Source: Branchiostoma floridae
Lineage: Eukaryota; Chordata; Leptocardii; Amphioxiformes; Branchiostomatidae
Reading direction: 5' to 3'
Assembly: GCF_000003815.2 (NCBI RefSeq)
Contig: NC_049980.1
Coordinates: forward strand, 7,864,175-7,928,174
Length of the DNA stretch: 64,000 bases
The notes below the pieces were generated by a model, which saw nothing but the letters and a program-made list of their open reading frames with translations, did no database searches and was not told the DNA's origin. Shown here one piece after another: positions 1 to 59,817 of the stretch (positions within the stretch are counted from its first letter, which is position 1; each line of letters begins with the position of its first letter). Position numbers and translations under genes: made by a program.

Positions 1-2402
1 TCACAGACAAATCAGGACAGCACTGAGCACTGACGAATTGGATCAACATTACCACGAGAAAGCTACTCTCCTTCATTCACTGGGAAACGCCGAGTTTGAC
101 AGCTCGTTTGACCACCTCCTGTCTTACGTCAACAACACCGACAGTCCACCACTGCTGCGGAGAAGCGCGCTGTCTGCAATCAGGAAATACGATCACCATG
201 AGGTGAGTCATCATTACCATTTATCTATCTATCTATCCGTCCATCCATGTTTCAAGTATTTATCTAATATCTATGTCTATTTATCTCTCTCTCTATCTAT
301 CTATCAATCTATCTCTATCTATCTATCTATCTATCAGCTTACCTATCTATGTACCTATCTTGACTGCCCTCTACAAACTGACGAATGGACACTGCCCACC
401 CCACCTTTGCAATCTCCTACCCACTACCAGGTCATCAGCCATTCAATCTAGATACCCTCTTAGAAACGGAAACAACCTGACAATACCATTCCCAAAAGTG
501 CACGTACCCAGAAAACCTTCTTCCACAGAGCCACCCAGTTGTGGAACACTCTCCCACTTGAAACTCAGACAGCTCGCTCATTGTCCTCCTTCAAGGCCAA
601 AGCCTGGCTCTCTCTTGGAGACCCATTCTCCGTTAACTAACATTTATTACACCATGCTATGTGATTTCCTATGTGGACATATTGTACATGATGTATATAT
701 ATATATACGATGCACATTTGTAAATTTGTAACCATTTTGCTATGTTAATGATAGTGCTTTTATATTGACAATGTTTACTACAATGATTTCATATGTAACA
801 TGTATTGTTCTTTCCCAGGGCTAGCCCTTGGCAATAGCCTATGGCTAGTTGGGCAGCCCTGGCTGTCTGTAAACAGCCGAACGAATAAATAAATAAAATG
901 TACCTATCCCTCAGTTCAGTTCAGTTCATCCTCATATGAGGTGCCATTTGAGGTTTTGGTAACCTATCTCTATCCATCTATATCTATCTATCTATCTCCC
1001 AATACTTCTATCTATCTAATACTACATTGTATCTATCTTTCTCATGGCGCGTTTTAAGGAATATATTCTATTGGCAGTTTTATCTCCTGGTGAAATATTA
1101 ATGCAAAGCTTACAGCTATTGTGTGTTGTCAGTGCAAATGATTTTTGTGATGTTGTACTATCATTTCCGATCGACTCTCAGAGAGAAAGCCATTGCATTT
1201 TAAAGTAAGAGCAGCGAAGAGATTAAACGCTTATAATATGGGCATCTTGCTGACCCTGTCAATATTTTTACACATCTTTTATTTATGTTTAGTTCTGGAT
1301 AAAGAAATATATATCTCTTTTCACAAAAAATTTGTAATATGTATTTCTGGAAACATGTGATCGCATGCGCAGATCACATTAGTTAATTAGCGCCTCGAAC
1401 GCTGACCTCACGTAACACAAACCAGAAGCCCCCACCAGGGAGGCCAGCCACGCAAAGCTGCGCTCGTCAGGTCATCAGCAAATCATACTAAAGCTTCAAT
1501 GTTTCATCCGCCCACCCACCACGTGGTTTTCAATGTTAAAGTGCACCATGCATTAAAACTCTACCAAGCCCATTCCTTCTCCGTCTCTTTTGAACCCGAC
1601 ATGCAGTGTGAAAGAGAAGATAATCTTTGTGAAGTTAGTTCCCCCTAAATGCTATATTGATATAGAATTATTCCGGACTTTTTCTTAAAACAAAGAAGTT
1701 GTATCTTTCCTCAGGCCGCGAGTCTTCTCCTGGACAGCGCCCTGTTTGATGAGGAGGAGCATGTCCGCTATCACGCTTCTCTTCAGTACCAAAGGCATCC
1801 CAAAGCGCTCAACCTCCTGAAGATAAAGCAGAACATGGCAAATGGGTAAAGTCATTTTTTTCTTCTTTCAGATATCTACTTTTTTCCCCACCTTATTTCA
1901 ATGTTTGGTAAGGTGCAACGGTTAAAAGTTGGATTCAGTAACAATAGATTCCTGGTTTGATACTCGCCATACCTTGACGTTATACCCTTGGTACATTATT
2001 ACGCGATATGCCATGACGCTAACTGAGCCTCTCAGTTAATCTATCAAAAACACACACGGATTTGGTGCGCCACGGACACCAACATATTCACATTTCCCAA
2101 CAATATTTCCGGTAATTTATTTTTCGTATTCGAGTACAAATTTGCTATTTACAAGTGACACCATATTACTTTTCCAAGATCCGTAAGATTTTTGTTCAAT
2201 GGCGGATTTAAGTCCAGTAAATATATGCTATCTATGAGTTGCACCATATAGCTTAAACGTCGCAATCTGGTTTGTAGATGATACATCTGCCGTTTTCAGG
2301 TCTATCAACATCGAACACTATCTTGACGACCTGATGACAACGACTCATGCCATGTCAAAACATGTCCGACAGCGCCGAGGTTTATTGGAAGCTATTTCTC
2401 GG
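1..2402 (+). CDS. Exons 1-3: C-terminal part of vitellogenin/apolipoprotein-like (LLTP) superhelix
   Basis: Exons 1-202 (partial), 1715-1845 and 2300-2402 encode about 145 residues. The first two exons contain a pattern typical of the Vitellogenin_N helical repeats: HSLGNAEFDSSFDHLLSYV, then LRRSALSAIRKY, then a second repeat with LLLDSALFDEEEHVRYHA and HP. In vitellogenin, apolipoprotein B and MTP this superhelix wraps the lipid cavity. Exon ends are gag|gtgagt (202), a phase-2 donor at 1845 and cgg|gttagt (2402). The residues around SRQRRG-type basic positions in exon 3 (HVRQRRG) could be a furin-like site, but this is weak. The family assignment is by eye; a profile search with Pfam Vitellogenin_N would decide it. 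Confidence 0.7.
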
Positions 2403-5400
2403 GTTAGTGTATTACTTAGTTGAATGCTGTACAAATTAATCATTATATCAGAATCAGAATCTGCAACTGAATTTCTTTAGTGGATTGTGCTTTGTTGGGT
2501 ACAGTTTGTTACTTTTATTTTTATTTTTATTGTAGCTTATTGACTTGAATCAAATATGATTTACCTCAAAGAAGCAATAATAACGTTTCTACATTCATAT
2601 TAAATAGATATCACGAAGGCTTAGTTTACTAATGGAATAATATGCGTTTTAGGGAATCCAGTTCCATCTGAAACTTCCTGGGATAGACTGGCAGAAACGT
2701 ATTGGTACGAGTAACATCGGAGCGGAGTTCGGACTCGTTGTTAAAAATGAATTGGATCTTGACATCCGTAAGTTCGTAAAATACTCGTCTATATATCTAT
2801 ATATCTATATATACTATCTATATTTAGAAACTTCTTTTACCATAGTTACGTGACACTGAATTGAGTCAAATTTGTTGAATATTTTATAAAGTAAAGCATA
2901 AACGCCTTTCAAGTTTTTCCAAGACGTAGTATTTTCTGCATAACTATGCTGCATGTATCATACGTAATTAAATGAATTTTTGCACTTACTTTATTTTGCA
3001 CACGTATCAAAATCATAATTCAATGGTCTATATTGTTTATTTGATTCAGGCACCTGGCCCATACATACATCGCCACACACACCGACAAAAAAGAAGAGTA
3101 CATATACTTAACAACTAAAAAAGACTTAACTTATTACAATATATTACCTTAAATGTAAAAACGTTAAAAAAACTTTGTCATCGTTGTGATGTTGTGTGTT
3201 TGTTATGACATTTTAAAACGTGTTGTTGAATGTTTTTAATCCGACCACCCATGATTTTCTCCAATCGTTTTCTTTGATTAATAATTGATAAAGCTTGTCA
3301 GTTTGCAACTCACAAAGAAAATGTTTCAATATCTTTATTCTCAGGACCAACAAAAGGACATGTTCTAGTTGACGTTGACGATCAAATCTATGCAAGAGGC
3401 TTGCTAGGTTACATTGGTATGACATACGATTTCATCGACGCGGGGATATGCTTTAAAGGTGGCATTCGTTACCAGGTCAACATCCTGCAGGTATGTGAAC
3501 AGCCTGTTATTATATAGTTCTACATTTTCCACTGTCAGGCCTATCGCCTGGAGTATGTAGCGAACAACAACACGCACGATCAATCAACAACACTCCAACC
3601 TGCAAGATATTCTTCTGGATGCATTATCACCTATTATCATATAGCCAGGCACCGCGGACCAATCAGAAGCCCCCGTTCCACGTTGGTTATGACGCCGTAA
3701 TGCAAAGATTTCGGCCACGCCGATGTGTATCGCTCCTCTGATTGGTCAATATGAATCGACACCGGAACCAGTGTCGATGCAAATCGATTCGATGCAAATC
3801 TGACCAATCAGAAGGAGCGATACAGACAAGAAAGTAAGGTATATGGCCAATCAAAAGAAGCGAAACATATGCCAGACCAGAGGGAATAAGTGCAGACTGC
3901 AAGGGGGAATGGCTCATTCTGTTGATAATGAGTTTTGCTGTTCTAAACAGCCAAAGACTGGAATGTTTCTAATATTTTCTGTGAATATTTTGGTTTCAAA
4001 ATGCAATTTGTAATCTCCTTACAAATGTATGTACCAAAGAACAAATTTGAATTTTCAGAAATTCGACAAAGGAATTCACACGTATAGTACCAAGGGATCT
4101 ATATGCGCCATACAGGAGTTTGCAAGTTCGCTTCGCTCACTCGGTGGTTTTATTCGGTGGTTATAGCAAAGGACCAGGCGTTATGACACCATATACACCT
4201 CGGGGCGGGTCATTAACCCTTAAATAAAATACCCCCTCCTCTTGTTGGGGAAATTCACCAATACATTATAACCTTCGATAAAAAAAAATATGTTTTCAGT
4301 AGCGCCTGTGTCTGTGTATGTTTGTATATATATATGTATGTATGCGTGTATGTGGTTAAACAGTATAATTCTAGAAGGAGTGAATGGACTGTTTTGATAC
4401 TTGATATATCGGTAGGCCCCTATCGGCTTGAGACGGTTATGCACGCAGTGGAACTTCCAGTCTATAGATATCTCGAGGTTTGGACATGCTATTTTGAGTG
4501 CCAGATAGCTCTTTGGGTAAGTGTTGTAGGTTTATATGTCATGTCACAGAAAAGATAGACAGCCACAACAGTCACTTTCAACTTGTAATAACGTTTAAAG
4601 ATTTAGCTACTGTATTTGCTTACTGAATATGTCAATGTACTTTCCTGTAGGATTTTTCCTTTGAAGAGCTGATGGATTTTATCAAGATCTGGTTTCGAGA
4701 CGTGCCCAAAGTGATAAGAGATATAAAGAGCACAATAGAAACATTCAAACATCTGTTTGACCGCTTGGCCGAATCATCACCAGAGGAAATATTTCAAACC
4801 ATCTTGGATACAGTCAGAACTTTCCCAGAGACTGTAAAAGCTATTGCAAGGTTCATATTTATATATATATATATATTACATTTTGATTATTCTGTTTACA
4901 CCTTCTTCATTATTATTTTTTTACATCAGTCGAGTATGCATAAGTGTCGGAACTTATTGGATCTCATTCATATGTATTTGGTAAAAGATGGCGGCCGTAA
5001 GTGTTGATTTTATTTTCATAGACTGGCGATGGAGGCGTGGGAAAGAATCGCGGCATACAACAACTTACCCAGCTTCATAGAAAAAGCAAGAGAGGCGATC
5101 CTTAGAGTCAACACACTTCTCAACAGCGTGAAAAACGATGTCAACGACCTTCTTAATGTAAGTTTAAAGATACTTTCTCTGTGTGAAGGGAATACTTGTA
5201 TTTGATAATCCGACTTTTATGGGGGTGGGGTTGACATTATTGATATGTACACAAAACGTATTTTAAATCATACAATATGAATGATTTAAAAAGGAGAGGC
5301 CAAGGAAGACCCCTTAATCAGATCAGTAAAATCTGGAGGGCACAAATTGTGTGCAACTGACTATATATTGTATTCCACTTACATAGTAACCTTTGTGTAT

Positions 5401-8294
5401 TGCACTGTTGTTACTATTATACATGGCATTGTTAATATTGCACTTAAACGTAAGTTATCAGCGATATATTTCTTGCTCAAAATGTTGGCATCCATCTGTC
5501 TCGGAAGACAATGGTAGGCAGACAGGGTGGGTTAGGCGACCCGTCTGCCTGGCCTGCACATGACTGCTTGCCCAACATATTACGTATGATGAACACAGTG
5601 CGCAAGCTTTCTGACCCCAGCGTCCTTATTGCCTACGGCTGACAGGTTTCTCACATTATCACTGTTGACCACCCCCTACTGCCTACCTCTATAGTCACCA
5701 CGGTAACAATATATTGACTATGTAGGTATATGTCGTCCTTCAAGGGCTTATCCTCTGCCATTTTTCTGTCTACTGCTATAGCTACCTAGGTGTGTTGTTG
5801 AAATGAATCGTCAATTCAAGAAGAGTCAAGTTCTGCTGAGTTGGGTTTTGTATACTAATGTCAGGTACAAGTGGTGTAGGTAGGATGTCCGGGTGCATTG
5901 TGATGTGTGTCACTCCCTCAAGGTGTTCAGGACTTAGATAACACCGTATGGTAACCGGCGGATCCGATATGAAGTACCAACCTAGCAGTGTGGTAACCAG
6001 TTCCTTTAACTCAACGTTCTGATGCCAAGTGTATCTTGCTGTCAATGCCAATGTACGAGCATTAAGGACATGGCGAAGTAACTGGTGACAAACACAATGG
6101 GCACTTTGTTGAGAGGAGTAAGTTGTTCCTTGTTGGTAGCCAGTCCCTCATCCCATTCAACTAAAAAACACCTTGCGGCACATTGTACAGGGAACGTCAC
6201 CATGTTACGCCATTTTTCTCTACTTCCAAGTTCCGTCCATCTTCCTTGTACTTAAAGAGTACTACTGTGTTCCTCAATTTTACTGTCATTGTCCATTGTC
6301 ATTTGATTACTCGGCACAGTTTCTTTTCGTTAAATGAAAAAAAAATGATATTGGTACACAATCATTGCGGTCAATACTTTTAAGTACATTTGCAATTGAA
6401 ATATTTAGACAATCATTTTGTAGAGCTAACTTCTTTATTACTTGTCGATGGAGACTTCATTAATGTAATAGAAATCTGACGTATGGTGTATATTTTAGGA
6501 GATTTCGGACTCCATTCTCACCGTGTTGCCATGGGCGGCCGAGCAGATCTGGCAGGGCGTGGAGACAATTGTACAAGAGGTTCCAAAACTCATCAAGTCT
6601 CCACAGACGGCCATTGGAAACATCGCTAAAGCTGCTTTCAAGTATGCTTTCCTCAACATCAATATAATTTATGTATTTGATGTTCAGTTATTCCTCTTTC
6701 AGCCTGGAATGTTTTATTTTAATGGCCAATGGCTGAGATGTTTTGTTTTATTTCAGAATTTACCAAGCAGTAATTGGCCTTATCAACATCAAGGACTCTG
6801 TTGAAGAAGTCTTCCTGTTTAAGGAAGGTTCGTATTACAATAATGGTATTGCATTTGTAAAATATGGCCATATATCTGCAGGAACCATGGAGGATGCAAA
6901 GGCAGTAAATTCTTCTATACGTCTTTCTTAACAATACCTACGTAATCCTTGCCTCCATGGCCAGTCTAAGAATACTGGTCATAACAGTCATTGGCTCCTT
7001 AGACTGGCAAATTTTGCCGTTAATGCGTTGAAATTAACCCTTGTTGAACCCCTTGCTGACATCGTTATGTCTAGTTCACAAGGTGTATCGACGCAGCACT
7101 TGTCCAAGGAATGCAATACTATAGCCTCTATTTCTGCTCTGGAAAAACTCAAGACAAAAAAGCGATCGAGTCTAAAGCTCACTAGCACTTATCGACGTGA
7201 AATTCAAAAGCATGATGTTATAACAATACAATGTTGTGACTTAGGCATTCTGATTTAGAGCTAAAACAAAGTTTTGTAAAAGTTTCGAAAGTCCTTCACT
7301 CTCCGGAAGGTGCAACAAAAGGACTCCGTTCTAAAGTTGTCCTATGGCTACACAACTTATTTGTACGATCAGTACAGCATTGGGCTATCATAGTTTGCGT
7401 TAGCTTTAACTAATTATTACTTTTTCCCGTATGCTGAGAGTTAAATTCCCAGTGTTAACGGGGATAGTAGTAGTTGCCAAATTGAAAGTCTTCGCTATGA
7501 TCCGGCAAGGATCGAACTCACTATTTATCGAATGCGAGCGAACATCGCACCAACCCCGTTAAGTTAAGTTTATTTAACTAGTACATACATCAGCTAAGCT
7601 AGTTGAGGTAGCATGATTTTACAAACTATAACTGTTCAAAGGCCACACATGGATTTCCATTGCTAAGATTGTGGTTTTTCTGATGTGATTTTGTTTTTAT
7701 TTACGACAGGAAAACAACCATACTTTTTCAACATCGGTATGGAAATACAGGGAATTCTTGACGATTTCATGCATGTGTGGGACCTCTTCCAGAGTGAAGC
7801 TCCAGACTGGATAGAAGGACTAGGAACTCATACTGAGGGAGTGTTGAAAGACGCATTTGGTGACATGGTATTTTCATGATACATCATTTCACAAACTAAC
7901 ATCAGAATATGTCTTATCTGCCCGTATATGGAAAACTGATCAAGATATCGTAGCATGAAAGTTCATTCGTGTTGGTAGAATACATTGTAGAAAAATTTCT
8001 AAACTTTACTTCCAATACTGTGATAATTATAGGGACTTACCCCTCTAAAGTTTCGGTCAATCTCCGTCGACCTTGTTCACAGAATGACCCTTTCTATCTC
8101 CAGCAGTGACGTCAGGAAGGCACCAATTTTGCAAGGGGATCACAAGTATCAGAAAGTCTACGGCCCACACTCAACAGAGACGGGGGGCGACATAGACTTT
8201 CTGATATTATAGTTATTACAGTGTTGGAAGTAAAGTTTAGCAATTTTTCTATAATGATCTCTCTCTCTCTCTCTCCTCTCCTCTCTCTCTCTCT

Positions 8295-8361
<67 letters not shown>

Positions 8362-10510
8362 CTGGTATGATGAATGCACATGTTAAACTAATTCTTTTTT
8401 TTTGTTTTAAAGAAATCCTTGGGAAACGGTGTGGTCAACAAGGTAAACGAATCGATGTGGGTCCTTCAAAAGCAAATAGCACCTATTGCAGAACTTGTAG
8501 GACCATTCCTGGAAGCCTACAATGCAACAGTGGGTACAATCAAATCCGTGGAGAGGTGCTACGAGTCACTGAAAAAAGGGTATGCCCGCCACTTGTGTAG
8601 AAAATGCTCTTGATCAAATACCTACCTGAATGTACTTAGGATCCAAAGAAGATTTCTTTTATATTATTTGTGTTGTTTTTCAGTTATGAAACCGCACGAG
8701 GGATTGTACACAGAATCTTTGGACCAAAGGTATCTCTTAAATTCCCAAAGAAGAAACTTGATCCTGAAACATGCGGAGGTGGCCTGTACCCCAGCACGGG
8801 AGTCAGTACAAGAAGCTACGACAGTCGAGGTATCGACTTGGAGATACCCACAGGCCAAGAGGTAAGGAAATGCAACGATTGCTTCTCGAGCTTGCTTTAT
8901 ACTTGGTACGTGCGTGTTCTGCAGCTGGATATATGGATAGCATATTTATGAACGTATGACCTGAGCCACACATATCGGAAATGAGCTTACTTAATGTATT
9001 GCTTGCTTCAGGCTCAATGAGCGAATTAAGTGACAGTATCAGAATTATCAAAAGATTATTGAAGATTTTGAAAATTACTTTTTCCCAAATGGCATACACC
9101 GTCACATGCACAGAGTACAGTGTGTGACAGGTCGTTCAGTGGTACATAACTAGCTGACATCACGTTCCCACAGAGTTGGGGAGGGGGTTAACACAGGCTG
9201 TAAAATACAGATAAAGTCCTCTTTGAAAACTTAATTCTTTATATCCAGGTTGTTGCGCCATTTGCGGGAGAGGTCACACGCGTCTCCCTTCAGAGCATCA
9301 CTATTGCTACAGATGAAATAAAAGGCATGGAAGCAATCGTGGATGGCATCGACGTCGGGAACTCAGTCAAGGAAGGAAAACGGGTATTCTTTGTTGCTAT
9401 TTTCTATTCGTGTCGAGATAAAGAAACACTTAGTTGTATCATATGCAAGCAGATATAATTTAGTCGGGGAAGGGTAATTTTTTTCTTTTTCATCTTTGCC
9501 CTCTCATAGAATACTGTTACTGTAGTAACGCAAAATCCACTGAATGCAAAATTAAATGTTGTACCAATAAATTTTTGGCTGGGAGTCTATGTTCCTCAAT
9601 TAACTACTTGTATTCCTAGGAACCTATATCCTGGGTTCGTTTGTCATTAAGGAGGTCAATGTCATTTGCAAATCTTAGGCTGCAGATACGCCTGGAACCA
9701 ATGGGGGTGCGGTGGTCTTGAAATGTGTCCTGTATTATCTTCTCCAGATACACATGTATGTTATTATACACAACCAGTCAAAACATGCATCTTGGTGGAC
9801 CCCGACAGTCACTATAAAGAATCCCCCAACTTTGTTGTTAAGAAATACTGCACTGGGTGCATTTTCAGACAGGTCTTTGTTAGTTGGGATTAGACTCCCA
9901 TTCGACACCATATCATAGCCTGTCTGTACAATATGTATATACATGTATCATCATAAATGATGCATAATTATTTTTTCTCTAAGGTTGAGAAAGGAGAAGT
10001 GATCGGCACAGCAGCATCAACTGGCTGTGACACCAATACCATCCACTTCGCACTGAAGGAAAGGGGATCAAAGAAATATGTGGATCCAACCAAATACGTG
10101 CCTTCCGGAGGAATAATGAACGTAGATGTAAAGCCAGGGTGGCAGGAAGAATGTAACAGCTACTGGCTGACATTAAAAGTGGGTCTTTTTTTGCTAGTTG
10201 CACTACCAATTTTAGTATAATAAGTTTTTGGATTACCAATTCCAGCATGTAATCGGAAAACGAAATCAGCGTAATACTATGTTAACTAATTCGTATATCA
10301 ATATATGCCGCATGTATTCTTGCTGTTTTAAGATATAAGTCATATAAGTGTGAGGAATTGTTAAACACATAACAACACAAATTGTTCGTCTTTTCTGTTG
10401 TGTATTAGGGTGAAACTATCGGAAGTGGGAAACTTTCTGACGCTTTTGAGGATAACGAGACTCCGGAAGCGCCCGCTGATGATCTAGACAGGTAATATAT
10501 TGTTTTCATA

Positions 10511-10565
<55 letters not shown>

Positions 10566-13500
10566 GACTACGTCTTAAAGGCTTTTTGTTTCCCATTGAG
10601 AAAAAACACTGCCCTCTGTGAAGAGTATGAGCATTATAGAAAAAAAACGTCATAGTATGTTTTTATGACTTTTTTTGCTAAATTCTATATCATAATCATC
10701 AAAGGTTGTTGTTTACAGTCTTTGTTTAGTCCCAACCTAAAGTGTACTTAAATATTATAACGTTGCTCAGTTTATTTAGTATACAAACTAACAATAACAG
10801 TTCTTTTCATCGGCCTACAGCAGGAGTCTTCCGCTCTCTACCTCTGTGAATGACAAGTCCAGCCGTCAGCGTCTCAGAGAGGGTATTGCAAAAGCCATTA
10901 GAAGCAACCCAGGTATCACTCGCCACGCAATACGATTAAACTGGGATATTTTGTTCCTGGGAACAATGATAAACATAAACCAGTGTATTTCTTATTTTAT
11001 ATTGTTTATTTGCACATAAAGAATCATAGTATAACAAAAGATCTGTACAACACGCTGGAGAAACCAGAAACATAAAATATTGAACTTAAGTTAATTACAT
11101 TTTTGTTTTGACAAATCCTGATAATTACATTACATAAGCACTGAAGCTCAAGAGTCACTTACATTTAGCTTTCTATAATTGACAGTTGTGTGTCTAGAAG
11201 ACCTTGTTATCATAGTAACCTCTTTTCATACTAGGAGACTACACTTACTGAAACAGTACCTATCAGGCAGACTTACTCAATCAAACTAAAATTCAATTGT
11301 TTCTACATTTTATTATGTGTGTTGAAGAGACTCTTTGATACTGTAGTCCGCAGTGTCTTAACCTAGCCCCGCACCCACGTGAGCGGCATGACGGTGAAAG
11401 ACTGTTCGCCAGAGAATTTACACTAGCCGAATTATTGCGTGGATATTACTATCCTGTATCAAAGATGGATTTTCATTTGACTATCATTAACAAGTACCTT
11501 AAGCATTACAGCCATAAAAGGATTTTATTTCAAAGCAAGGACATTTTGATTCTAGATGTCTGTTTATATACACATGTTATACACATGTTCACGTTTTTTT
11601 TAACACTTTCACTAATTGAAGTTATTTAACAGACTTTCTGCAGATGCTCGGAGTTAGTGATTTAACGGACGCAAGCGGCGTTTTTTCGTTAAAGCTACAT
11701 ACCATCAAAGTGTCGACCGTTGTGAGCATTTTCGACGCAGTTGGACTGGGAGACGGCCTGCGCTTCATACTTAACATATTAGAGGTAAGCATGAAAGTTC
11801 ATCTGTGTTGGTAGAATACATTATAGAAAGAAATGCTAATACTTACTCCCAACACTGAATTAAACTAAAGGGACTTACCCTCTAAATTTTCGGTCAAACT
11901 CCGTCGACCTTGTTCACAGAATGACCCTCTCTATCTCCAGCACTGACGTCAGGAACACACCACTTTTGCAGGAGGGGGTCATAAGTATCAGAAAGTCTAT
12001 GTCGCCCCCCGTCTCTGTCTTCGCGCGAGGAGTGAAGGAGGCGGTGTACATTAGAGCCCACCGGCCCACACTCAACATAGACGGGGTGCGACATAGTTTA
12101 ATTCAGTCCCTATAGTTTAATTCAGTGTTGGAAGTAAACTATTATTCAATCTTTTATAAAATATTAGAGGTAAGTTTTTAAAAATGTTTTTTCAGAACTG
12201 AATCTAGTAAAAGCATGTAACTTTTTGTGCAGAAACATCAAAAGGTAGTCAATGATAATATAGACACATCATACAAAGGTGGTCTGCTTCACAACCACCT
12301 TAGGGTGTTGCTTCACAGCCAGTTGTTAAATGTAAAATTTGTTGAACTAACTTATGGCAGTTGAAATGTTATGTTCATTTAGAGAAATTCTACTGTTTTT
12401 ACAGCATTGCTGGGGATCCTGCAAAATACCCAACAGCTTGACAGATGAACAGTTACGATGGGAGCTGAAAAAACGGGGAAAATCGTCTATGGGATCACGT
12501 GATGCCCTTTTACAAAGATACACCACCTCAGACGACAGTAAGCCAGCAATATCCATTTGCTAGTTTCTGTTTTCTTTTAAAATGACTAGGCACTGCTTTT
12601 CAAAGAGACCTAGGGTACATACAAGCACTACTTGAACGTAAAATAAATCTAAAAAAGTAGATATGTACACCGAATATATTTTCCATATGCGTAGCGGGTC
12701 TACCGAAAGTGCGAAAAGGAACGAAAAGGAACGAAAAGGAACGAGAAGGAACGAAAAGGAACGAAAAGGAACGAAAAGGAAAGTGCCGCAAGTGCGAAAA
12801 GGAACAAAAAGAAACAAACGTTCATTTTCGTTCCTTTTCGCACTTTTGGTACTTTCCTTTTCGCACTTTCGCTACCGAAAGTGCGAAAAGGAACGAAAAG
12901 GAACGAAGTATGAAGCAAACTAAAATAAAATCAATGAGAATATAAGGAACCGGTACTACGGGCGTTAGAAGCCTATGAAACGTATTTTATTCTACTCAGA
13001 ATTTGGCAATATCAAATTTTTACGGGGCTGTTTTAAATTTAGGCTGTTGTCTTTGTGTGGCTAAATTATTCTCTGAAGATCAGCGAAATACAAAGAAACA
13101 GAACTGAGATAAGAAAGTAAGGACTAAAATTCAGTTACTGGTGGGTGATGGATAAATATTGATTGATATACNNNNNNNNNNNNNNNNNNNNNNNNNNNNN
13201 NNNNNNNNNNNNNNNNNNNNNNNNNNNNNNNNNNNNNNNNNNNNNNNNNNNNNNNNNNNNNNNNNNNNNNNNNNNNNNNNNNNNNNNNNNNNNNNNNNNN
13301 NNNNNNNNNNNNNNNNNNNNNNNNNNNNNNNNNNNNNNNNNNNNNNNNNNNNNNNNNNNNNNNNNNNNNNNNNNNNNNNNNNNNNNNNNNNNNNNNNNNN
13401 NNNNNNNNNNNNNNNNNNCTGTGAAAGGATAGACATTTATACATTGTACCAAGGAGTTTTCTTCACGTTGTACCATGAGTATTCATCATTTTGCGGGAAG

Positions 13501-42126: not shown

Positions 42127-42189
<63 letters not shown>

Positions 42190-42212
42190 ATGTGTGTGTG
42201 TGTGTGTGCGTT

Positions 42213-42257
<45 letters not shown>

Positions 42258-48200: not shown

Positions 48201-51200
48201 ACCGGATGGATGACTGATGATGATGATTAGAGCTCTTCCTTATTGAAATATTGTTCTATCTATATCTGCAGGCTACCACCAAGCGCAGATAACCTATGTC
48301 GCTATGGAGACCCATTCCGTCCCGGGGACAACAGTGTCTCTGTTTTTTATGCAGGAGTTGGGACCGAAAAGTTCAGGGATGATGTCGCACCTTTCCGGGA
48401 GGTCAGTTAAATTTTAATTTCAAAACGTCAGATGTAATTTAAAGTACTCACTAACTTTGTGTACTCGTTTATAAATTCATTGACATTTTACATGGTATTA
48501 GTTGCTGGATCTTCTTACTTCTTCCTAGATGCATACGCTGGAATTTAATTATTTTAACATTTATAATAATATTTCTTTTCTCTATCTTTTTCAGATTGCC
48601 CGTCCCTGCGTTCCATGTGTTAAGTCATGTGACAAGTTTGACTGTGACCCGGACTGTTCCGACGTTGACATTTCAGCCTTCCACGTCAGGATAGACAACC
48701 TTACTCTCAGTCCTAACGTCAGCTTCAAGCAGCTGGATGGTATAAACGTTACAGACACTGCTGCGGTCTACTACATCACAGTTAAAGCTGTATCAGGTAC
48801 ATCACCTTTCTTCGGTAGAAAATGTAAAGATTAAGCTTATTGAAGTTTGGATGACCTTGAAATGTTTCATTTGGTGAAAACATGTCATTTCTCATGTCAT
48901 TACCTCTGTGTTTACATATTGTTTCCGAGCCCCTATTGTATCTGACAAAAGTTCCGAATAGCGAAAATTTCCTGTTAATCGACAACGTGTCTTATTCTTT
49001 CTTATGTGTATGCTTGGTGTTGATGTTTAATTTTCCACTACGCGGTAAAATACATCATTTAGGTGAAGCGTTTTTGAAGATCCTGTGCCTTGACATACAT
49101 ATTTATATGTCTCTATCTATAGGATCTGGACGTACAGCATTGGCTTGTTCAAATGGTGTTTACGTCGACGTCACACCGCCAGACATCCAGGGTATAGACC
49201 ACGTGGACATGTCATGGGACGATGAAGAGATTGGAGAGTACCAGGGGAGCAACAGCACAATCGCCGTTAGGTACAGTGCCTTCGACAGAGAAAGTCAGGT
49301 ATTCAAATTCAATTTTTTTACACCAATACCTTAACGGATGATACAACTGATTTAATGTCCGCACATGTTGGCTGTTTGAATACTCTCTTGTGGAGGAAAA
49401 ACTCTTGAACTCACATTTACATAAATCTATCTACCTAACATGATGGCATTTATATTTGTAAGCTATGACGCAAAGGACAAACATTTGAAGCGTCCATTCG
49501 CCTTGTAGGTTGCTGAGTACTTTTGGGCAATAGGGACGGCTCCGTGGGCAACTGATGTTCAGCCCTTCAAGTCCAACGGTCTACAAGAGATGGCTGTGAA
49601 CTCTGACCTAGAGGGTATTTTGCATCATGGTTCAACGTATTACGTCACTCTAAAAGCTGTCAACGGTGCTGGTCTGGAGACAACAGTAACCTCTTCAGGT
49701 GATGTTTTTTAATGGCAATATAATTGAAGTATTATTTTCAGACATTACCAATACAATGGACTATCGTCTTAACTTTGCCATAGTTTTCTACAAAGAATTT
49801 CGTTACATACAGAATGTCAAGATGGGTATCAATTTATGTCGTAGGCGTCAAAGTGCTTCAGGGGTACCCAAATGTCACAAAGACGAACACAACTGCGCTA
49901 TTTGGTGCGAATTTACCACACGATGTCTATCCTGATGACGTCATGGAGGTGACTGACCTGACACACGTAGGAATCTCATGGGAGCGTCCACAGGAGGACC
50001 AAAGCATCACCTCCATCTGTAAACCTACTTATTGTTTACTTCTTAGACGAGTGTCAAGCTTTAGACGAGTGTTTGATATGTCGTGAAATGTGCAAATCAT
50101 ATCGGTGCTTAATTTCCTGTTTAATTTATTTCACCACCACAGCAAAATTATATCTGCAGGAAAGCCTACCGGCTTCCTGAATTAGGTAACTTTGTTACAA
50201 GTTCGGCATGCGCAGAGTACACACAAATAAACATACAATGCAGATCAATTTTACAGCTACAATGTAACTGTAGTATCTAATTGTAGAGAATGATACGTAC
50301 AGGGTCCTCTTCCATGTATTATTCATTCTTCCCGATTGTACTGCTAACCCAGTCCAATGTTAGAAAATTTCATGGGATTTTAATTATGATATTCTAAAGT
50401 ACATGTTAGGTTGACTGTGGGTTCCTTGGGTGCTCTTTCTTCAAGGTAAAATCTACGAAAATGAAGGAAGTTTGTTGTTACATGGAATATTTTATCCAGT
50501 CTTCAGTGTAAGCAGCAGCGAGGACGGAACTGGTGACATCTTTCCCAAAACCCGGGTTGGTCTCAACGACTCGGGCAGCGTTGTCATTGCAGACGGGAAG
50601 GTAGAAACTTACGGCAGAGTTGTGAACATCACTGATATACGGCAGCATAGCGGTGAAGTGAAGGATGTAGTAGAGTCAAGCAAATTTGTGATGGAACCTG
50701 GCAGGTGGGCAAAATCTGACCATCATCATCTGTTACACTTTGCGTTTATCTGTCGAGATACAACTATATGTATATGCAAAGGACTACAATCAGTAAAAGG
50801 ACCAATTTTCGTACCAGCTGTGTACCGTAATAAAATCATATTTGTGATGAACATGTTTCGTTGTAGCACATGACAAATTTGTAAATGTTGCAAGAACAAA
50901 TGTCGTTTTAAGAATGTTGTTTGTTAATTGACACGGAATCAATTATGGCATTAAGTGATTATTTACTTCAAAGTCTTTACAATACTGTATATGTACATAA
51001 TGTGGACATATATTTCTTAATCTTTTGTTCAGGACTTTGTATCCGAAGTTACTTCTATGTAACGGTGCTCATCAGTGTACGGATGTCAACGTAAAGAAGT
51101 CAATTTACATTCGTAAGTGTCTTGACGGAAAATACGCTAAATATACTTGATCTGTTAATACGGTCAACCATCTTATGTTTTGGCCGATGGCGTCATTGAA

Positions 51201-54200
51201 TAAGCCTGATTTATTCATATTTGATTATGAAATATTTACTTAACTGTATGAGTTTTTTTTCATATTATCAAAATATAGAAAATATGAGCAATGTAGAAAG
51301 AAAACCTGTAAAATGCATTGTTATAACCGTTTTTGTCAAAAATGCCTGTCAACAACCGGTTGCTATGGCAACACGAAAATGAAAAACTTTCCTTGTAAAA
51401 TTGTTGACACTCATCATCATCATCGCGGGCTACTTGCCCGGACCAAGTCCACCCTCTCCTTCCAGACTTCTCTGTCCCCCATTGCGTTCTTAAGGTCCTC
51501 GACCCGAAGCCCCACATCACGTGCAAGTTGGTCTATGTATGTTAGTCTAGGTCGTCCAGCATGTGCATAAATGAATTTAAAAAGTCTCCAAATTTCGTCT
51601 AGCGTACACCGTTCAGGCTCTAGCGTACGCCGTTCAGGCTTTATGCGACATCAAAATTGGCGTAGGCCTCAAAATCAACCCCCTCCCAAATCCGAATAGA
51701 TTTACGTTAAGTTCTGTTATCTTTAATTATGTCAACGTTAAGTTATATTACAACTTAAATTGTTATGAATATACTGAAATTCCAAAGTACTTGTCTCACT
51801 ACAGATGTTGATGATCCAAGTTAAAATAAAGCAGGAGAATTTAAAGGATAGGTCCACTTAAAATTCTCTTAAAAGTTTACGATTCTGGTTGCCATGGAGT
51901 TGTTATATAATCTTTTTCATTTTCTTGAAATAGGACCAGGAGACATTACTGCAGTATCTCACAACGGAGAGGGAGTAGAAGTCGTGTTGAACCAGACTAA
52001 ATTCACAAGCATTTCAATAAGAACTCCGGGAGGTCAGTGCGTTATTTTTGTTATCTTCTGTCGTCTATATTGTAGAAAACATTTTTTTTTCATTTTACCT
52101 TGTAAAATTATTTACAATTTGTATTCAATAAAATTCAAATGAACCTTTTATGTTTAAGGACTGCGAAAAGGCACTGCAATTGTATCTGGTTTGCTTGAAG
52201 ACAAAGATATCACAACTGAATACACGTCAGACGCTTCAGCAGACTTCAAGCCCTTCGTCACCGATCCAAGTTTTACCAAGGATATCGCTGACCGATGGCT
52301 GAAGAACAGGTATAACTCTGAGTTTTATTACTGTTTGTCATATTGATATGTAAGCACCAACACTTTGATTTTAAGCTAATAGACAAGGATGTAGTAAGAT
52401 TAACTTTTTTTCTTAATACTTGTACTTCCGGATCGCACACTGTTTTCTCTCCATACCGGATGTCTATTCACTTAGGATACAGTATTGGTTGGACGTCAAT
52501 TTCTTCGTGACCACGTTGGGGAATGTGGAGCTACCAGGTCCCATCAACATTACCGTGCCTATCAACACAACACAGATAGAGCCTGGACTGGAACCACGAC
52601 TTCTCTACTGGAACTTGGGTAAATAACCTGTTATTCTAAATTTATGTAGTTTACACAGCTACCAGATACCAAATGTCATTTTATAGAGATGAGTTGTTTA
52701 TGATTTTAGGCAAGACACTACTGGTAAAAACACTGTGTTTTGCAAATCCAGAACAAGGAGAATGGCAAGATGCACAAAGAACATGTAGCAGAGGCGGGGA
52801 AGCACAAACGCCTTTAGATTGGACGGACAATTACGCGCATTTCCAGGTATTCAAGAGCATTCGTCATTTAACTTATGTCGTATTCTCGTTGTTTTGATAA
52901 AGCATCCTCTTGGCGTATTAATACTAGGTTCTGTTTCCTGATTTCCAAAGTGAGAAAGCGTAATGTACGAATGCTATGTGTAAAGTTGAGTTTTAGCGAT
53001 ATGTAAATCAACTAAAGTCGCTGTTATCTAACCCTTAGCTCTGTTACTTTCTAGGTGTGCAAAACCAATGTTTACAACAGAAAGAGGAATGCCAGACGAA
53101 TGCCCAAAAGTATACACGAAGCCAGAGGTTACTTCCAAGGCTCCACGCATCTCACCCTCGCCGCTGTTGACAAGACCTTTCTGAACTCTCCTCCGGTCCT
53201 TACTTCCGACACTTACATAAATGTGCGTGAAGATGAAGAAAGGGCGATCATGATCGAGTACTATGATAACGAAGACGATCGTCTTGCCTTCTTCATCACT
53301 GGCCCGCCTCACCTCGGACAAGCTCAGCTCCGCAATGAAGAGGTTTGTGATGACAAAATTAAGTCCCATCTTCTGCCAACCAATAATGAACCAATTGTAC
53401 ACTCTCGTTGCTTAGTGCCGATACAGCTATATTATTCGACTACCCCATTCCACATACACGTTTAAATGAAATGTCCACAACATCTGAGCATAGGGAAATT
53501 CATGTCATGGGAGACTTTAATGTGGACTGGATTAAAACGTCAGATGTATCAAAGAAACTACATGGTATGACACAAAGCTACGGTGTGCAACAGTTAGTTG
53601 ACAAACCAACAAGAACTGTGAACCGAGGACTATCAGTGGTGGCATCTTGCATCGATCTGTTATTTACAAACCAACCAGACAAATGCAGCAAGATAACCAT
53701 AAGGACAGTTGGCTTCTCAGATCATGATGCCGTGATGTTTACACGCAAGGCAAAGATCCCAACAACAGGGCCAAGAACTGTGCATAAAAGAACATACAAG
53801 AACTTCACTGAGGACGCATTCCTTTATGAAATGAAGGAGGCGCCGTGGCACTTGGTGTATAACTTTGATGATGTTGACCAGGCGACTGAGATGTTCGCTG
53901 ACATTCTACAGGACACATGTGACAGACATGCACCAATGAGGAAATTCACTGTCAGATCAAACGCAGCCCCTTGGCTGACCCCAGACATCAAGGAACTGAT
54001 GCAAATGAGAAATGAGGCAAAGAGGGACGCCAAAGCAACTGGACTAGCATCAGACTGGGCTGTATACCGGAAGCTCAGAAACAGAGTGGTATCAGTCTGT
54101 CGCAGGGCAAAGGTTCAGTTTTACAGGGACACATTTGAAGAATGTAGTGGGAACCCGAAAAAGACATGGAATACCATCAACTCCCTTCTTGGAAGGAAAC

Positions 54201-57200
54201 ATACTGTAAGTCCAGCCTGTGTGCAAGAAGGCGGAAAGCTTCTCAGCAAACCCCGGGACATAGCAGAGCATTTCGCAAAGTTCTATGACACCAAGGTTGC
54301 CAACCTTCGCTCTGGTATGAGCAACACAGCCGGTGATGAAACATACTCAAACCTCGGGCAGGAGGCCTTCGTGCTAAAGTCAGTCACAGTAAGGGACGTG
54401 CACAAGATTCTGTCAAGACTTCCGGATGGTAAAACCCCAGGATGCGACGGAATAGACAACAAACTCCTGAGGATTTCTTCAGACATCATAGCAGAACCAC
54501 TGACTTACATAATCAATTTGTCTTTTGCAACAGGAACTTTCCCAGCAAAATGGAAGCATGCCAAGGTGATACCGCTTCTGAAAGACAGCAGTAAACCACT
54601 GTCCGGACAAAACTCTCGCCCTGTAAGTCTCCTTCCAACTTGTGGCAAGGTATGCGAGATTGTTGCCAGTGAACAGATCGTCTCATACTTCTCCCGCTCA
54701 GGTCATCAATCAGAAGCACAACACGCGTACCGTAAACTCCACTCTACAGAAACAGTCCTTCTGAAGATGACAGATGAGTGGCTGGACAGTATGGACAAAG
54801 GACTTATGACCTCGGTAGTGTTGCTGGACTACAGTGCGGCGTTTGACTTAGTAGACCACGCCCATCTTCAGAAGAAACTCGAAATGTACGGTTTCTCAGA
54901 GGAAGCGTTGTCTTGGATCATGTCATACTTGTCAAACCGCAAGTGGCAGGTCTATGCAAACGGGGCATACAGTCAGAGCCGAGTGTTGCAATGCGGGGTG
55001 CCGCAGGGAAGTTGTTTGGGACCACAACTGTACAGTATTTACGTCAATGACATGTCCAGTACAGTAGAGAATGGGGAACTGGACCAGTATGCTGACGACA
55101 GTACAGTACATGCAGCAGGACGCACTGTACAGGACATAAGAACAAAGACTCTGGTGGATTTAGAATGTGTGGCTAAATGGTCGGACCACAACATGCTTAA
55201 ACTGAACAACGGCAAGACAAAGACCATGCTGGTTGGGACGTCTAAGAAGACAAGAGTCGCACCTCCACTACAGTTGGAACTCAGGGGGCAGAGTTTACAA
55301 CAAGTACCCACTGTCAAGCTTTTGGGAGTACATGTCGACCAAAACCTCACATTCGACAATCATGTAGACCATGTTGTAAAGAACTGTAATAGAAGCATGG
55401 CGCAAGTGAACAGGGTGAGGAAATTACTTCCGCGCAGACTGAGGATAAAACTGATTCAGGCCCTTGTACTAACACATCTAGACTACTGCAGTTCGGTGTG
55501 GGCAAGTACGTCTAAGAAGAACATAAACCGGCTACAGGTCGTGCAGAACAGAGCGGCCAGGATCGCCCTTGGTTGCCACAGGTACACAAGCAGGGACGCT
55601 TTGCTGCAGACGCTAGGATGGCTGTCCGTGAAAGACAGAATCCAGCAGAAAAGTGTAGAGACTTTTCGTAAGATGATGAAAAACAAACAACCAGTCTGTC
55701 TGTATAAACAGGTCAAAATGCAGTCCCATGGATATCAAACACGCTCATCAAAATCCCAAACTATCAGACTACCAAAGCCCAGAACAAATGCTCAAAAGAA
55801 AAGGTTTTTGTACAGAATGTCCAGCACATGGAATGGTTTGCAATAGATAATTGGTCCCATTGTATATATAAAACCTCTAGTAGTCATTAAGTAATCTTTT
55901 ATCACGTGTGAATTTTTATGTACATTGTATAGATTGTATGTCTTCCTGTGTGTCAGGTTTTTGTCCTGTTATGTTTAATAATTGTTGATAAAGACCACAG
56001 GAAGAGTAGCTTCAATGTACTCCATTGTTATGCTAATTGTGGATCTTAATAAAGTCAAGTCAAGTCCACTTCAACTTCTCTTTGCCTTCAATTCCAGGAT
56101 TTCCTGATTGTCCTTTACGACCCCCGCCTGGATTGTTACGGAACAGACACAATCAACATATTGGCTGTAGAGATGCTGCCAAACAACATGAACCCTCACC
56201 ACGTCAACGTCGAGCTGGTGGTGGAGGTGCAGCCCAGCAATGACGATCCAGTTCTGTTTGTCCTTGTTGAGAACAACCCTGCCGTAATCGTTCCCACCAA
56301 ACGGTTAGACCTTACAGTGGAGGTGAACCGTGTGTCTAATGTGAAGTATATTGACCTCCAAGTGGTCATCGGAGCCTATGACGTTGAACCTGAGGACACG
56401 GTGACTCTGTACTTTAGTGCAGGGGGTAATGGCACCATATCAACATCACAGCAGGAAAGGCGTGTTGACTTCAGTTACGATGGTTGCAGCACCAACAACA
56501 CTTGGTTTTCGGTTGTCAGAGAACACGATAAAAGCAACTCTACAAGAGCTCTACATCTGGGCCCATGTGACATTCAAGCACCGCATCCTTTACAAGACAT
56601 GGCTTGGGTATTCACCACTCTCACATACAGACCACATACAAACTTCACAGGTAATATACACCTGCTTCTATACCGATAGATACATTGCTATGGAATTATT
56701 ATTAATTCTTCAGTTTTGTTCATGATTGTACAAATCTTTAATTTTTTGAACACGTTAGGCCACACCAATTTTAATTGCTTGGTTCACGGATTTTTTCATA
56801 AAAAATATGGAGCGAAAGGGAAAAAAAATTGTGAAATGGTTGGGGTAAAGATAATGGCTAATCCAAAACATAAAGAATAAAAAGTTTTCAGCTTGAAAAA
56901 AGCACAAAAACACTATTACTGTACAGTAACAGCACCTGTTCGTTGAAAATTACAAAAGTAGTGTCAGTTTATATGTTTGTCCCATTCTGAATGAATGAAA
57001 AATACAACTGCAATAATAATACCCACATTTTAAGGAGCTAATAATATAAAGGCCAATTTGCTACACCAGAAAGTTGGTGAATGATTTCATTAATGGTGAA
57101 AATTTGTTGACTGGTAATTTTTATTTTTATTTTGCTTCACCAAAAAATAGGAGCGAGCGAATTCGTGAACCAAGCAATTAAATTGGTGTGGCCTTAAGAC

Positions 57201-58782
57201 TAGCTGGCATATTTATCTACTAAACATCTTTTTGGTGTCATTTATAAACTCTCACCAAACATTAACAGCACGCAAAAATACAGCATTGTTGCATATTTTG
57301 CATTGACAGGGAGGGATGTAATAAAGATCAACGCCAGAGATCAACATGGCGGCATCTCTCGTGTTGTGACCCTGGATCTTTACGTTTTGGAGAACCTGTG
57401 TGAACATGGCGGGGAGTGTGTTGGTGATGTCACTGATACTGGTTGTACATCAAAGGACAGAGCCAAAGGATTTGATGGGTATATATTAGTTACAGTCTTA
57501 ATGTTTGCTATCATAAGACGGCTCCATATATGGTGCTGGGGTATATATAGCATAGACCTTTTGGTAACATTTTTTCATACTTTTAAAAACGATTTATATC
57601 TATTGCAGAAAATGAGTCCTATCACTTGCAGTCGCTTTTCATTTGCGACTCGAACAGAATCATTCTACAACAGTACAAAGGGTCACGTAAACATCAAGGA
57701 TATACTGTAGCTACCTATCATATATATATATATAGCATAGACCTTTTGGTAACATTTTTTTCATACTTTTAAAAATGAGTCATATCTCTTGCAGTAAATG
57801 AGTCATATCTCTTGCAGTCGTTTTTCATTTGCGACGTCGACTGGAACAAAATCATTTGACAACAGTACAAAGAGTCACGTAGACATCAAGAATATACTGT
57901 AGCTACCTAACTCTGGTAAATGTGTTATGGCATACAGGTACTGGTGTAACTGTACGAGCGCACCAGGCTGGACAGGCAGACTTTGTCAGACCGACTATGA
58001 TGAATGCCTTTCAACTCCCTGTCCTGGCAATTACACATGTATTGACCAGGTGAGAAATCAGGTTTGACACTACTGCAACTGCCAGACGCATAGATTTACA
58101 TATTCCCTCCACTAGAGAATGTAAGGGAATAAAAAACAAGAGAAACAACTAATTCAATTTCATGAATAAAGAATAAAACTAATTTACATACTAATGTTGT
58201 CTTCTAAATTATACTTTACATCATATTCCCATTATAAAATCAAGGTTACACAAATTCATTTCGGTGGCTGCACGGTAGGTCATCAAACCCCGTGTACTGG
58301 AAAGGGGGTATTGCAAATAGCGTCGTTGAACAGGTAAACGATTGTTACTGGTTCACTATTCGAGGTCATTGTCAGAAAGTATTCAAGTACCATCTCCGAA
58401 TCCTTACAGGCATTAACTTAACCAGTAATGACTGCATCTGAATACAATAACATTTTATATAGGTGAACGGTTACGTCTGTGAGTGCGGAAATCCCAGCTG
58501 GCCTTGTGCGGGGAAGTTGACAGCTTGGCAGATCTGCTTGATCGTGTTGGCAGCTGTTTTTCTGCTACTCCTGGCAATATTCTTATGGAGGAAATGGAAG
58601 AGGTCCAGGTAAATTTGGTACAAGTTTACGATAAATTACCGTGAAGATTGGCGACATAGACTAAGTGTTTAAGGTGCCTTTTAAAACGCACATAAATATG
58701 CAAATTTCAGAACTTTATATAATATAAAGAAATATGTGAGAAAGATTAGAAATGTTATGGACTTACTATACACAGTATCAAT

Positions 58783-58844
<62 letters not shown>

Positions 58845-59817: not shown

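What the first reader, a model, noticed from the sequence alone, without database searches (positions are those of the whole stretch)
1..59817. A giant receptor-like protein built on a vitellogenin-type lipid-transfer module
Seen: 86 exons in compatible phase join LLTP superhelix, amphipathic helices, M23-like, SAP-like, PAN-like, about 15 FN3-like repeats, a lectin-like sandwich, CSPG-like repeats, EGFs, a TM helix and a tail. Known: LLTP proteins (vitellogenin, ApoB, MTP) are secreted or lumenal and carry no EGF/TM receptor end. Inference: this may be a membrane-tethered lipoprotein-binding or yolk-like receptor not described under a named family.
Basis: partly seen in the sequence, partly recalled or inferred. 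Interest (0 to 1): 0.85.

Follow-up and report, generated by a model that had tools for sequence, protein, structure and literature searches.

The report
Membrane-anchored giant vitellogenin-family protein
A lancelet gene makes a giant cell-surface protein whose front end is the lipid-carrying module of egg-yolk and LDL proteins; the same unnamed protein recurs in many invertebrates, with related forms in single-celled organisms and a fungus, so this module may be older and more varied than its familiar secreted forms.

Summary
The window carries most of one gene (85 exons modelled in 1-59817; it starts about 36 kb upstream with a signal-peptide exon) for a protein of about 5,200 residues: large-lipid-transfer (LLT) head, R-x-R-R motif, helical bundle, degenerate M23/LECT2-like domain, SAP, beta-rich domain, PAN, FN3-type repeats, CSPG/cadherin-like and EGF-like modules, TM helix, tail. 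It is not a fusion artefact: 38 of 38 homologues with head, body modules, EGF and TM keep the order, and all 10 family loci of this genome have head, PAN/FN3 and CSPG/EGF-end matches in order on one strand, the TM part itself matched in 6. The predicted head matches MTP, lipovitellin, vitellogenin and ApoB first. The cleavage motif sits at the head/body junction in 53 of 57 homologues, against 2.4% of windows elsewhere. Relatives occur in eight animal phyla, in unnamed SH2-bearing sequences and, with gaps, in a chytrid; Monosiga is weak. No hit bears a functional family name and ten paper searches found no description. I read it as an unnamed, ancient, membrane-anchored LLTP branch. Its function (furin-cut lipid-binding surface receptor) is inferred.

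The parts
1..2402 (+). C-terminal part of the LLT superhelix (HEAT-like helices) of the vitellogenin-type head; the rest of the head lies upstream of the window
   Evidence: exons 1-202, 1715-1845, 2300-2402; homologous to the superhelix of P0001, whose head has Vitellogenin_N 2.9e-13 and LLTP fold matches
2367..2378 (+). RQRR: furin-type cleavage motif at the head/body junction
   Evidence: motif in 53 of 57 homologues with the downstream segment
2653..3490 (+). post-cleavage beta segment (GIQFHLKLPGIDW...)
   Evidence: exons; profile found in 81 of 160 proteins, the window's own included
4651..8768 (+). long helical bundle
   Evidence: exons; AlphaFold secondary structure, helices between residues 95 and 395 of the model of P0001 (low confidence)
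8769..10100 (+). M23/LECT2-like domain, ligand positions S, D, T, H (canonical H, D, H, H)
   Evidence: Pfam PF01551 1.4e-11; LECT2 and M23 peptidases as weak PDB profile matches; ligand table
12405..12537 (+). SAP-like exon
   Evidence: Pfam PF02037 25.5 bits, cut-off 23.9
14561..20918 (+). beta-rich domain(s), with relatives in sponge, chytrid and unnamed eukaryotes
23145..23329 (+). PAN domain
   Evidence: Pfam PF00024 3.3e-6, 27.3 bits
25027..45989 (+). tandem FN3-type repeats with D-x-[TSE]-P-P linkers; an exon is half hidden by the N gap 30707-30806
   Evidence: fn3 34.1 and 30.1 bits; 10 linker motifs in the whole product; post-gap exon
   Evidence: no Pfam match; conserved in family
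48595..50018 (+). Cys-rich stretch followed by further FN3-type repeats
53055..57395 (+). CSPG/cadherin-like repeats (Big_9)
   Evidence: Pfam PF17963 1e-6; a LINE-bearing intron lies inside
57396..58507 (+). EGF-like modules
   Evidence: cysteine pattern; profile in 90 of 160 proteins
58532..58588 (+). transmembrane helix ICLIVLAAVFLLLLAIFLW
   Evidence: Kyte-Doolittle mean 3.22 over 19 residues
58589..59817 (+). cytoplasmic tail (127 residues, no NPxY-type motif) and stop codon

Best explanation
One gene encodes a single-pass type I surface protein of about 5,200 residues (length taken from P0001). Shown by sequence: signal peptide, LLT head (beta sheet plus helical superhelix), R-x-R-R site, helical bundle, M23-like domain, SAP, beta-rich domain, PAN, FN3/CSPG/EGF stalk, TM helix and tail, in fixed order. 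Inferred: the head is cut by furin in the secretory pathway, as apolipophorin-II/I is, and stays attached to or is shed from a membrane-anchored body of about 4,550 residues; head, helical bundle and beta domain hold lipid or a hydrophobic ligand; the PAN/FN3/EGF part binds partners on cells or matrix; in part of the family the tail couples to endocytic or phosphotyrosine adaptors. So it most likely works as a membrane-tethered lipid-binding surface receptor/adhesion protein. I put the single-gene architecture at about 0.95 and the receptor function at about 0.45; the confidence given here is for architecture plus LLTP membership plus furin-type processing.
Against: No RNA from lancelet, protein or lipid-binding data were available. 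33 of 77 head-bearing homologues show no C-terminal TM helix and 36 proteins have PAN and TM but no head; some are incomplete models, some may be real secreted or headless forms. Pfam found no DUF1081, DUF1943 or VWD, and the body model was too poor (pLDDT 54) to say whether a lipid cavity exists. The head's fold matches have low whole-chain TM-scores (0.26-0.35 by query length) and rmsd of 10-20 A. A PDB sequence search with the P0001 head found nothing, and the head profile found mainly HEAT-type designs and no LLTP. The window copy's tail lacks the endocytic motif. The furin, TM and signal-peptide calls rest on simple patterns.
Confidence: 0.85

Rival explanations
1. Two or more neighbouring genes (an LLTP gene and an FN3/EGF/TM receptor gene) have been joined by prediction.
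For: Some public models start after the head (P0006, P0007, P0009) or stop before the TM (P0019, P0014); 36 proteins have PAN and TM without head.
Against: Same order in 38 of 38 complete homologues and at 10 of 10 own-genome loci, TM part matched at 6; P0099 has one 5,016-aa frame on a 15,340-nt contig; apart from the N gap the exon chain joins in frame without a stop.
Confidence: 0.04
2. It is mainly a secreted or shed lipoprotein/yolk-type carrier; the TM is only a biosynthetic anchor released by proteolysis.
For: Known LLTPs are carriers, and apolipophorin-II/I is furin-cut at the same kind of place (PMC1783640, section 7); 33 of 77 head-bearing homologues lack a called TM.
Against: A TM helix is called in 44 of 77 head-bearing proteins, and tails carry NPxY-type motifs far above shuffled tails or, in P0106, SH2 domains.
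Confidence: 0.2
3. It is chiefly an adhesion/matrix protein like FRAS/FREM or CSPG4; the LLT head has lost lipid binding and serves as a scaffold.
For: The PAN/FN3 part is better conserved than the head: in the 11 non-lancelet proteins with a superhelix match the 466-residue FN3_A segment scores 459-658 bits and the 313-residue superhelix 123-262; long FN3/CSPG/EGF stalk.
Against: The head keeps its predicted fold and the cleavage motif is conserved, hard to explain for an inert scaffold.
Confidence: 0.2
4. It is a microbe-sensing or phagocytic receptor: LLT head and M23-like fold bind bacterial envelope material.
For: M23-like domain in 74 of 160 proteins; three putative peptidoglycan-binding domains and three SH2 domains in P0106; several lancelet copies. 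That vitellogenins bind bacteria or their products is recalled and only touched on by abstracts seen.
Against: Only 4 of 69 M23-like domains keep all four metal/catalytic positions, the window copy two; no expression or binding data.
Confidence: 0.2

Closest known systems
[quoted passage not shown]
   Same: Vitellogenin_N/LLT module with N-sheet and helical superhelix; apolipophorin-type R-x-[RK]-R site after the superhelix
   Different: No DUF1943, DUF1081 or VWD found; continues into M23/SAP/PAN/FN3/CSPG/EGF modules, one TM helix and a tail; relatives outside animals
Insect apolipophorin-II/I and crustacean apolipocrustacein
   Same: Cleavage site of the same consensus near the end of the LLT module (PMC1783640, section 7 read)
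   Different: Those are secreted lipoproteins; this one is membrane-anchored
LDL-receptor family (lipoprotein receptors)
   Same: Type I membrane protein with EGF-like modules; NPx[YF] tail motif in 20 of 71 family tails
   Different: Pfam gave no LDL-receptor class A repeats or YWTD propeller; carries the ligand-type module itself; window copy lacks NPxY
LECT2 and M23 peptidases
   Same: M23 fold
   Different: At least one of four catalytic/metal residues missing in 65 of 69 family members, two of four in the window copy
FRAS/FREM and CSPG4-type adhesion proteins (recalled)
   Same: CSPG/cadherin-like repeats near the TM helix
   Different: No LLT head known in them (recalled)

Membership tests
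LLTP superfamily | LLT module: N-terminal beta sheet plus helical superhelix (Vitellogenin_N) | tested here: met
   Pfam 49.7 bits over cut-off 24 in P0001; Foldseek top 10 all LLTPs; VIA top 7 all LLTPs. Tested on the relative P0001; the window holds only the end of the module, the rest lies upstream
LLTP superfamily | lipid cavity formed with further beta sheets (DUF1943, DUF1081) | tested here: inconclusive
   not among Pfam matches; a conserved beta-rich domain exists but its model has pLDDT 54
LLTP superfamily | binds or transfers lipid | not testable with these tools
   needs protein
Vitellogenin family | LLT module with DUF1943 and von Willebrand D domain (definition from PMC10799875 passages) | tested here: not met
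   neither among the Pfam matches of the window protein or of P0093 and P0108
APO family (ApoB, apolipophorin-II/I, apolipocrustacein) | dibasic furin-type site after the LLT module | tested here: met
   comparison text, which speaks of apolipophorin and apolipocrustacein, not of ApoB
APO family (ApoB, apolipophorin-II/I, apolipocrustacein) | DUF1081 | tested here: not met
   not among Pfam matches
MTP family | LLT module only, nothing else (definition from PMC10799875 passages) | tested here: not met
   thousands of residues of further domains and a TM helix
LDL-receptor family | LDL-receptor class A repeats and YWTD propeller | tested here: not met
   no such Pfam match in the 4,631 residues scanned
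LDL-receptor family | NPxY endocytic motif | tested here: not met
   absent from the window tail; exact NPx[YF] in 20 of 71 family tails
M23 peptidase | H-x3-D and H-x-H catalytic/metal residues | tested here: not met
   window S, D, T, H; all four kept in 4 of 69
Type I membrane protein | signal peptide and single C-terminal TM helix | tested here: met
   signal exon at -36361, TM; by hydropathy and eye, no dedicated predictor

The most novel reading that the evidence does not exclude
The LLT module did not begin as a yolk or blood lipoprotein: an ancestral form in the opisthokont ancestor was already a giant, furin-cut surface protein with M23-like, beta-rich and FN3-type modules, kept in a chytrid, in choanoflagellates and in SH2/phosphotyrosine-tailed unicellular relatives, and through sponges to lancelets. 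It sensed and took up lipid or bacterial material; vitellogenin, ApoB and MTP are slimmed-down branches of, or sisters to, this receptor lineage.
Probability: 0.3. Interest if true: 0.92.

Novelty: new variant of a known kind. Interest (0 to 1): 0.78.

Why it matters
The papers seen here file LLTPs under Vtg (with clotting protein), Apo and MTP, and one dates the superfamily to before the cnidarian-bilaterian split (passages of PMC10799875; PMC1783640). A receptor-shaped branch with the same head in many animal phyla, and with matching parts in a chytrid and in unnamed SH2-bearing sequences, would push the LLT module back toward the opisthokont ancestor and make the old question of how lipoproteins and yolk arose testable. 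It would also give a large, unstudied gene family (10 loci in this lancelet) a common anatomy and concrete predictions: furin cleavage, lipid cargo, endocytic or SH2 coupling.

Tried and rejected
Rejected exons: 12233-12281, 27845-27995, 31084-31087 and 44096-44106 were removed and 27348, 31285 and 44247 given other bounds after reading the frames; 11972-12085 was dropped because it has no counterpart in P0001. The RT-bearing LINE frame in the intron 53343-56097 was first called as an exon and masked.

Pfam on the Monosiga P0155 head gave only HEAT_2 below cut-off, and profiles built from animals only found it weakly (junction 10.0, bundle 21.3, CSPG 21.0 bits, superhelix none), so its place in the family is probable, not proven. 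In P0106 and P0118 Vitellogenin_N stayed below cut-off (19.6 and 22.5 of 24) and the strict PAN profile found only the sponge. The iterative profiles generalise (the FN3 profile hits all 160 proteins), so they are used only for presence and order of parts; the profiles, built from 31 bilaterian proteins and run against reversed decoys, are the stricter test. For the chytrid rows that test gave N-sheet 54-62, junction 27-42, M23 35-44 and beta 60-64 bits, but superhelix only 17.5 and 10.3 bits, and Pfam Vitellogenin_N below cut-off. In the 160-protein set 81 have the junction segment: 71 with the cleavage motif, 7 without (two chytrid rows, Saccoglossus P0057, four ena rows), 3 begin too late. 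The tail count left out P0113, P0115 and P0116 by hand and counts close relatives separately. Ten paper searches found no description of such a protein; one search is weak because the underscore is passed over, and one search listed 40 of 99 papers. Absence of vertebrates, arthropods and nematodes is only 'not listed' in three protein searches, two of them capped, all limited by length.

Full report
What is in the window. The window lies at G000:C2:7864175-7928174 of a 513-Mb assembly. A splice-site and codon-usage dynamic programme trained on the window itself gives one open chain of exons; with the repeat and LINE stretches masked and the sequence cut at 59817 it ends at the stop codon there. 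After curation there are 84 exons with 83 GT-AG introns and one more exon half hidden by the N gap 30707-30806; an open frame near 40.2 kb matching P0001 shows that at least one exon is still missing. The product inside the window has about 4,700 residues (4,727, which still held the exon 11972-12085 dropped later).

The gene starts outside the window. Exons for the front of the head lie between -10951 and 202 (coordinates relative to window base 1), and an exon MRLGLFYRTVGFALFVGLASA/NLVRLDP at -36361 gives a signal peptide followed by the conserved mature start. Residues about 50-77 of P0001 were not found; there are 1,241 N between exon 1 and the next exons. A search with P0001 of about 150 kb upstream and 110 kb downstream, with 51,526 N in the joined 324 kb, showed one weak EGF-type match and no tandem copy.

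It is one gene. (a) P0001 of Branchiostoma lanceolatum matches the whole product at 67% identity and carries Vitellogenin_N, M23, PAN and fn3 in one protein; 82 of 85 exons tested have at least 40% identity to it. (b) Among 159 proteins returned by the three searches, 77 have the head (superhelix plus junction segment), 44 also a C-terminal TM helix, and 38 have head, bundle, M23, beta, PAN, EGF and TM together; in all 38 the parts start in the same order, lectin-like and CSPG parts included where found. N-sheet, SAP and FN3 were not part of that order test. (c) In the own genome PAN/FN3 exons occur at 10 loci (C2, C14 twice, C15 twice, C17, C4, C18, C19 twice); each has head exons upstream and matches to the CSPG/EGF/TM end downstream on the same strand. 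The TM stretch itself (query residues 302-320) is matched at 6 (C2, both C14, C17, C4, one C15); the other C15 and C18 are matched over CSPG and EGF, the two C19 loci over an EGF stretch only, and EGF stretches also match elsewhere in the genome. Grouping of exon matches into loci is mine. One further C-terminal match (C4, 23.19 Mb) has no PAN/FN3 partner. The Vitellogenin_N matches at E 0.01 lie elsewhere, on C5, C6, C15 at 19.87-20.33 Mb and C16. (d) P0099, from a source written 'lgn', has one 5,016-residue frame on a 15,340-nt contig with head, EGF and TM; since the animal genes are split into many exons I take this contig to be RNA-derived, which is inference.

A conserved cleavage motif. 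In 57 proteins with the segment just after the superhelix, 53 have R-x-[RK]-R in the 48-residue stretch that ends at its start; one begins too late and three lack it. In the same proteins 198 of 6,397 windows of 48 residues hold the motif (junction included), 149 of 6,284 when junction windows are left out. In the larger set it is 71 with, 7 without, 3 too short, of 81. Apolipophorin-II/I and crustacean apolipocrustacein are cut by furin-type enzymes at the same consensus, between motifs N19 and N20 of the LLT module (PMC1783640, section 7 read). So cleavage into a head of about 590 residues and a membrane-anchored body is the best-supported mechanistic prediction.

The body. Helical bundle and beta-rich domains were modelled poorly (pLDDT 54). 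The M23 domain is real (44.8 bits; LECT2 and M23 peptidases as weak PDB profile matches; lysostaphin and LytM folds) but keeps two of four metal/catalytic positions in the window copy and all four in 4 of 69 proteins, all named gastropods (names). SAP scores 25.5 against 23.9. The region called lectin-like has no Pfam match. Starfish and Haliotis members carry about 600-2,200 residues of extra sequence around the SAP position.

The tail. Of 71 tails (protein set) 20 hold NPx[YF] and 26 that or FxNxx[YF]; 500 shuffles gave means of 2.0 and 2.7 and maxima of 8 and 9. The window tail and those of its nearest relatives lack it. P0106, a 7,187-residue unnamed protein with superhelix, junction, bundle, M23, beta, FN3 and CSPG parts (PAN by the looser profile and the source's own Pfam list only), has three SH2 domains and many tyrosine motifs in its tail and three putative peptidoglycan-binding domains in its body.

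Spread. Named hits come from lancelets, hemichordates, sea stars, brittle star, crinoid, gastropods, bivalves, a cephalopod, annelid Owenia, nemertean Lineus, brachiopod Lingula, Nematostella, Dendronephthya and the glass sponge Oopsacas (animal groups assigned from recall). That is eight phyla. The cnidarian ones share head, junction, beta and FN3 parts but not bundle, M23, PAN or EGF. Outside animals: profiles built only from 31 bilaterian proteins find superhelix, junction, bundle, M23, beta and CSPG parts in P0106 and P0118 (P0117 begins at the junction), and N-sheet, junction, M23 and beta parts in two Geranomyces variabilis (chytrid) proteins, with no reversed decoy reported for those four profiles or for the superhelix (decoys reached 13.4 bits for the bundle and 14.7 for CSPG). 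Profile comparison aligns 637 columns of the chytrid P0158 head (probability 99.3%, E 4.2e-20), while the superhelix profile alone is weak there (17.5 and 10.3 bits) and Pfam Vitellogenin_N is below cut-off. Monosiga P0155 has a similar layout but weak scores. A tree of the PAN/FN3 region puts the window with six Branchiostoma rows at 100/100; BLAST identity to them is 79-83%, so genus was not settled.

Interpretation. The safest statement is: an unnamed, ancient branch of the LLTP superfamily that is membrane-anchored and carries a furin-type site. That it binds lipid, acts as a receptor, and senses microbes are inferences with the rivals listed. I rate the most novel reading, that the LLT module was already part of a giant surface protein in the opisthokont ancestor, at 0.3.

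Literature. Ten searches of the held open-access library (listings and starts of abstracts seen; section 7 and passages of PMC1783640 and passages of PMC10799875, PMC12549020, PMC9222137 and PMC13341560) gave LLTPs only as Vtg/clotting protein, Apo and MTP. Subscription papers and preprints were not searchable, so an existing description cannot be excluded.

Noticed in passing
window 53390-55843 (+): An 818-codon open frame with reverse-transcriptase-like sequence (a LINE-type element, named by eye) overlaps the intron 53343-56097 and fooled the gene finder at first.
   Followed up: partly
window 12560-14270 and 41990-42370: Simple-repeat arrays (a KRNEKERKG-type array in translation, and a long CA/GT run) lie in introns.
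   Followed up: no
G000 C14, C15, C17, C4, C18, C19: Nine further loci with head, PAN/FN3 and CSPG/EGF-end matches in order; those on C14, C15 and C19 come as pairs in opposite orientation with gaps of roughly 8, 136 and 38 kb between the outermost matches.
   Followed up: partly
P0106, P0117, P0118 (ena): Unnamed members whose reading frames fill most of their contigs; P0106 and P0117 have SH2 domains, and all three tyrosine-rich tails and PG_binding_1 domains; reminiscent (recalled) of choanoflagellate receptors.
   Followed up: partly
P0158, P0159 (Geranomyces variabilis): Chytrid fungus proteins with LLT-like head, M23-like and beta parts, calcium-binding EGF domains and an fn2 domain.
   Followed up: partly
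P0029, P0022-P0025: Haliotis and starfish members carry about 600-2,200 extra residues around the SAP position; nature not examined.
   Followed up: no
P0048 (jgi, ena): A 3,007-residue protein with a papain-type domain, perhaps bacterial, carries a long tandem of similar FN3-type repeats; transfer or convergence not examined.
   Followed up: no
public gene names: Automatic names for family members clash: HEG1, JAG1, SELE, FAT1, CRB-like, Vitellogenin, Apple domain-containing protein.
   Followed up: partly
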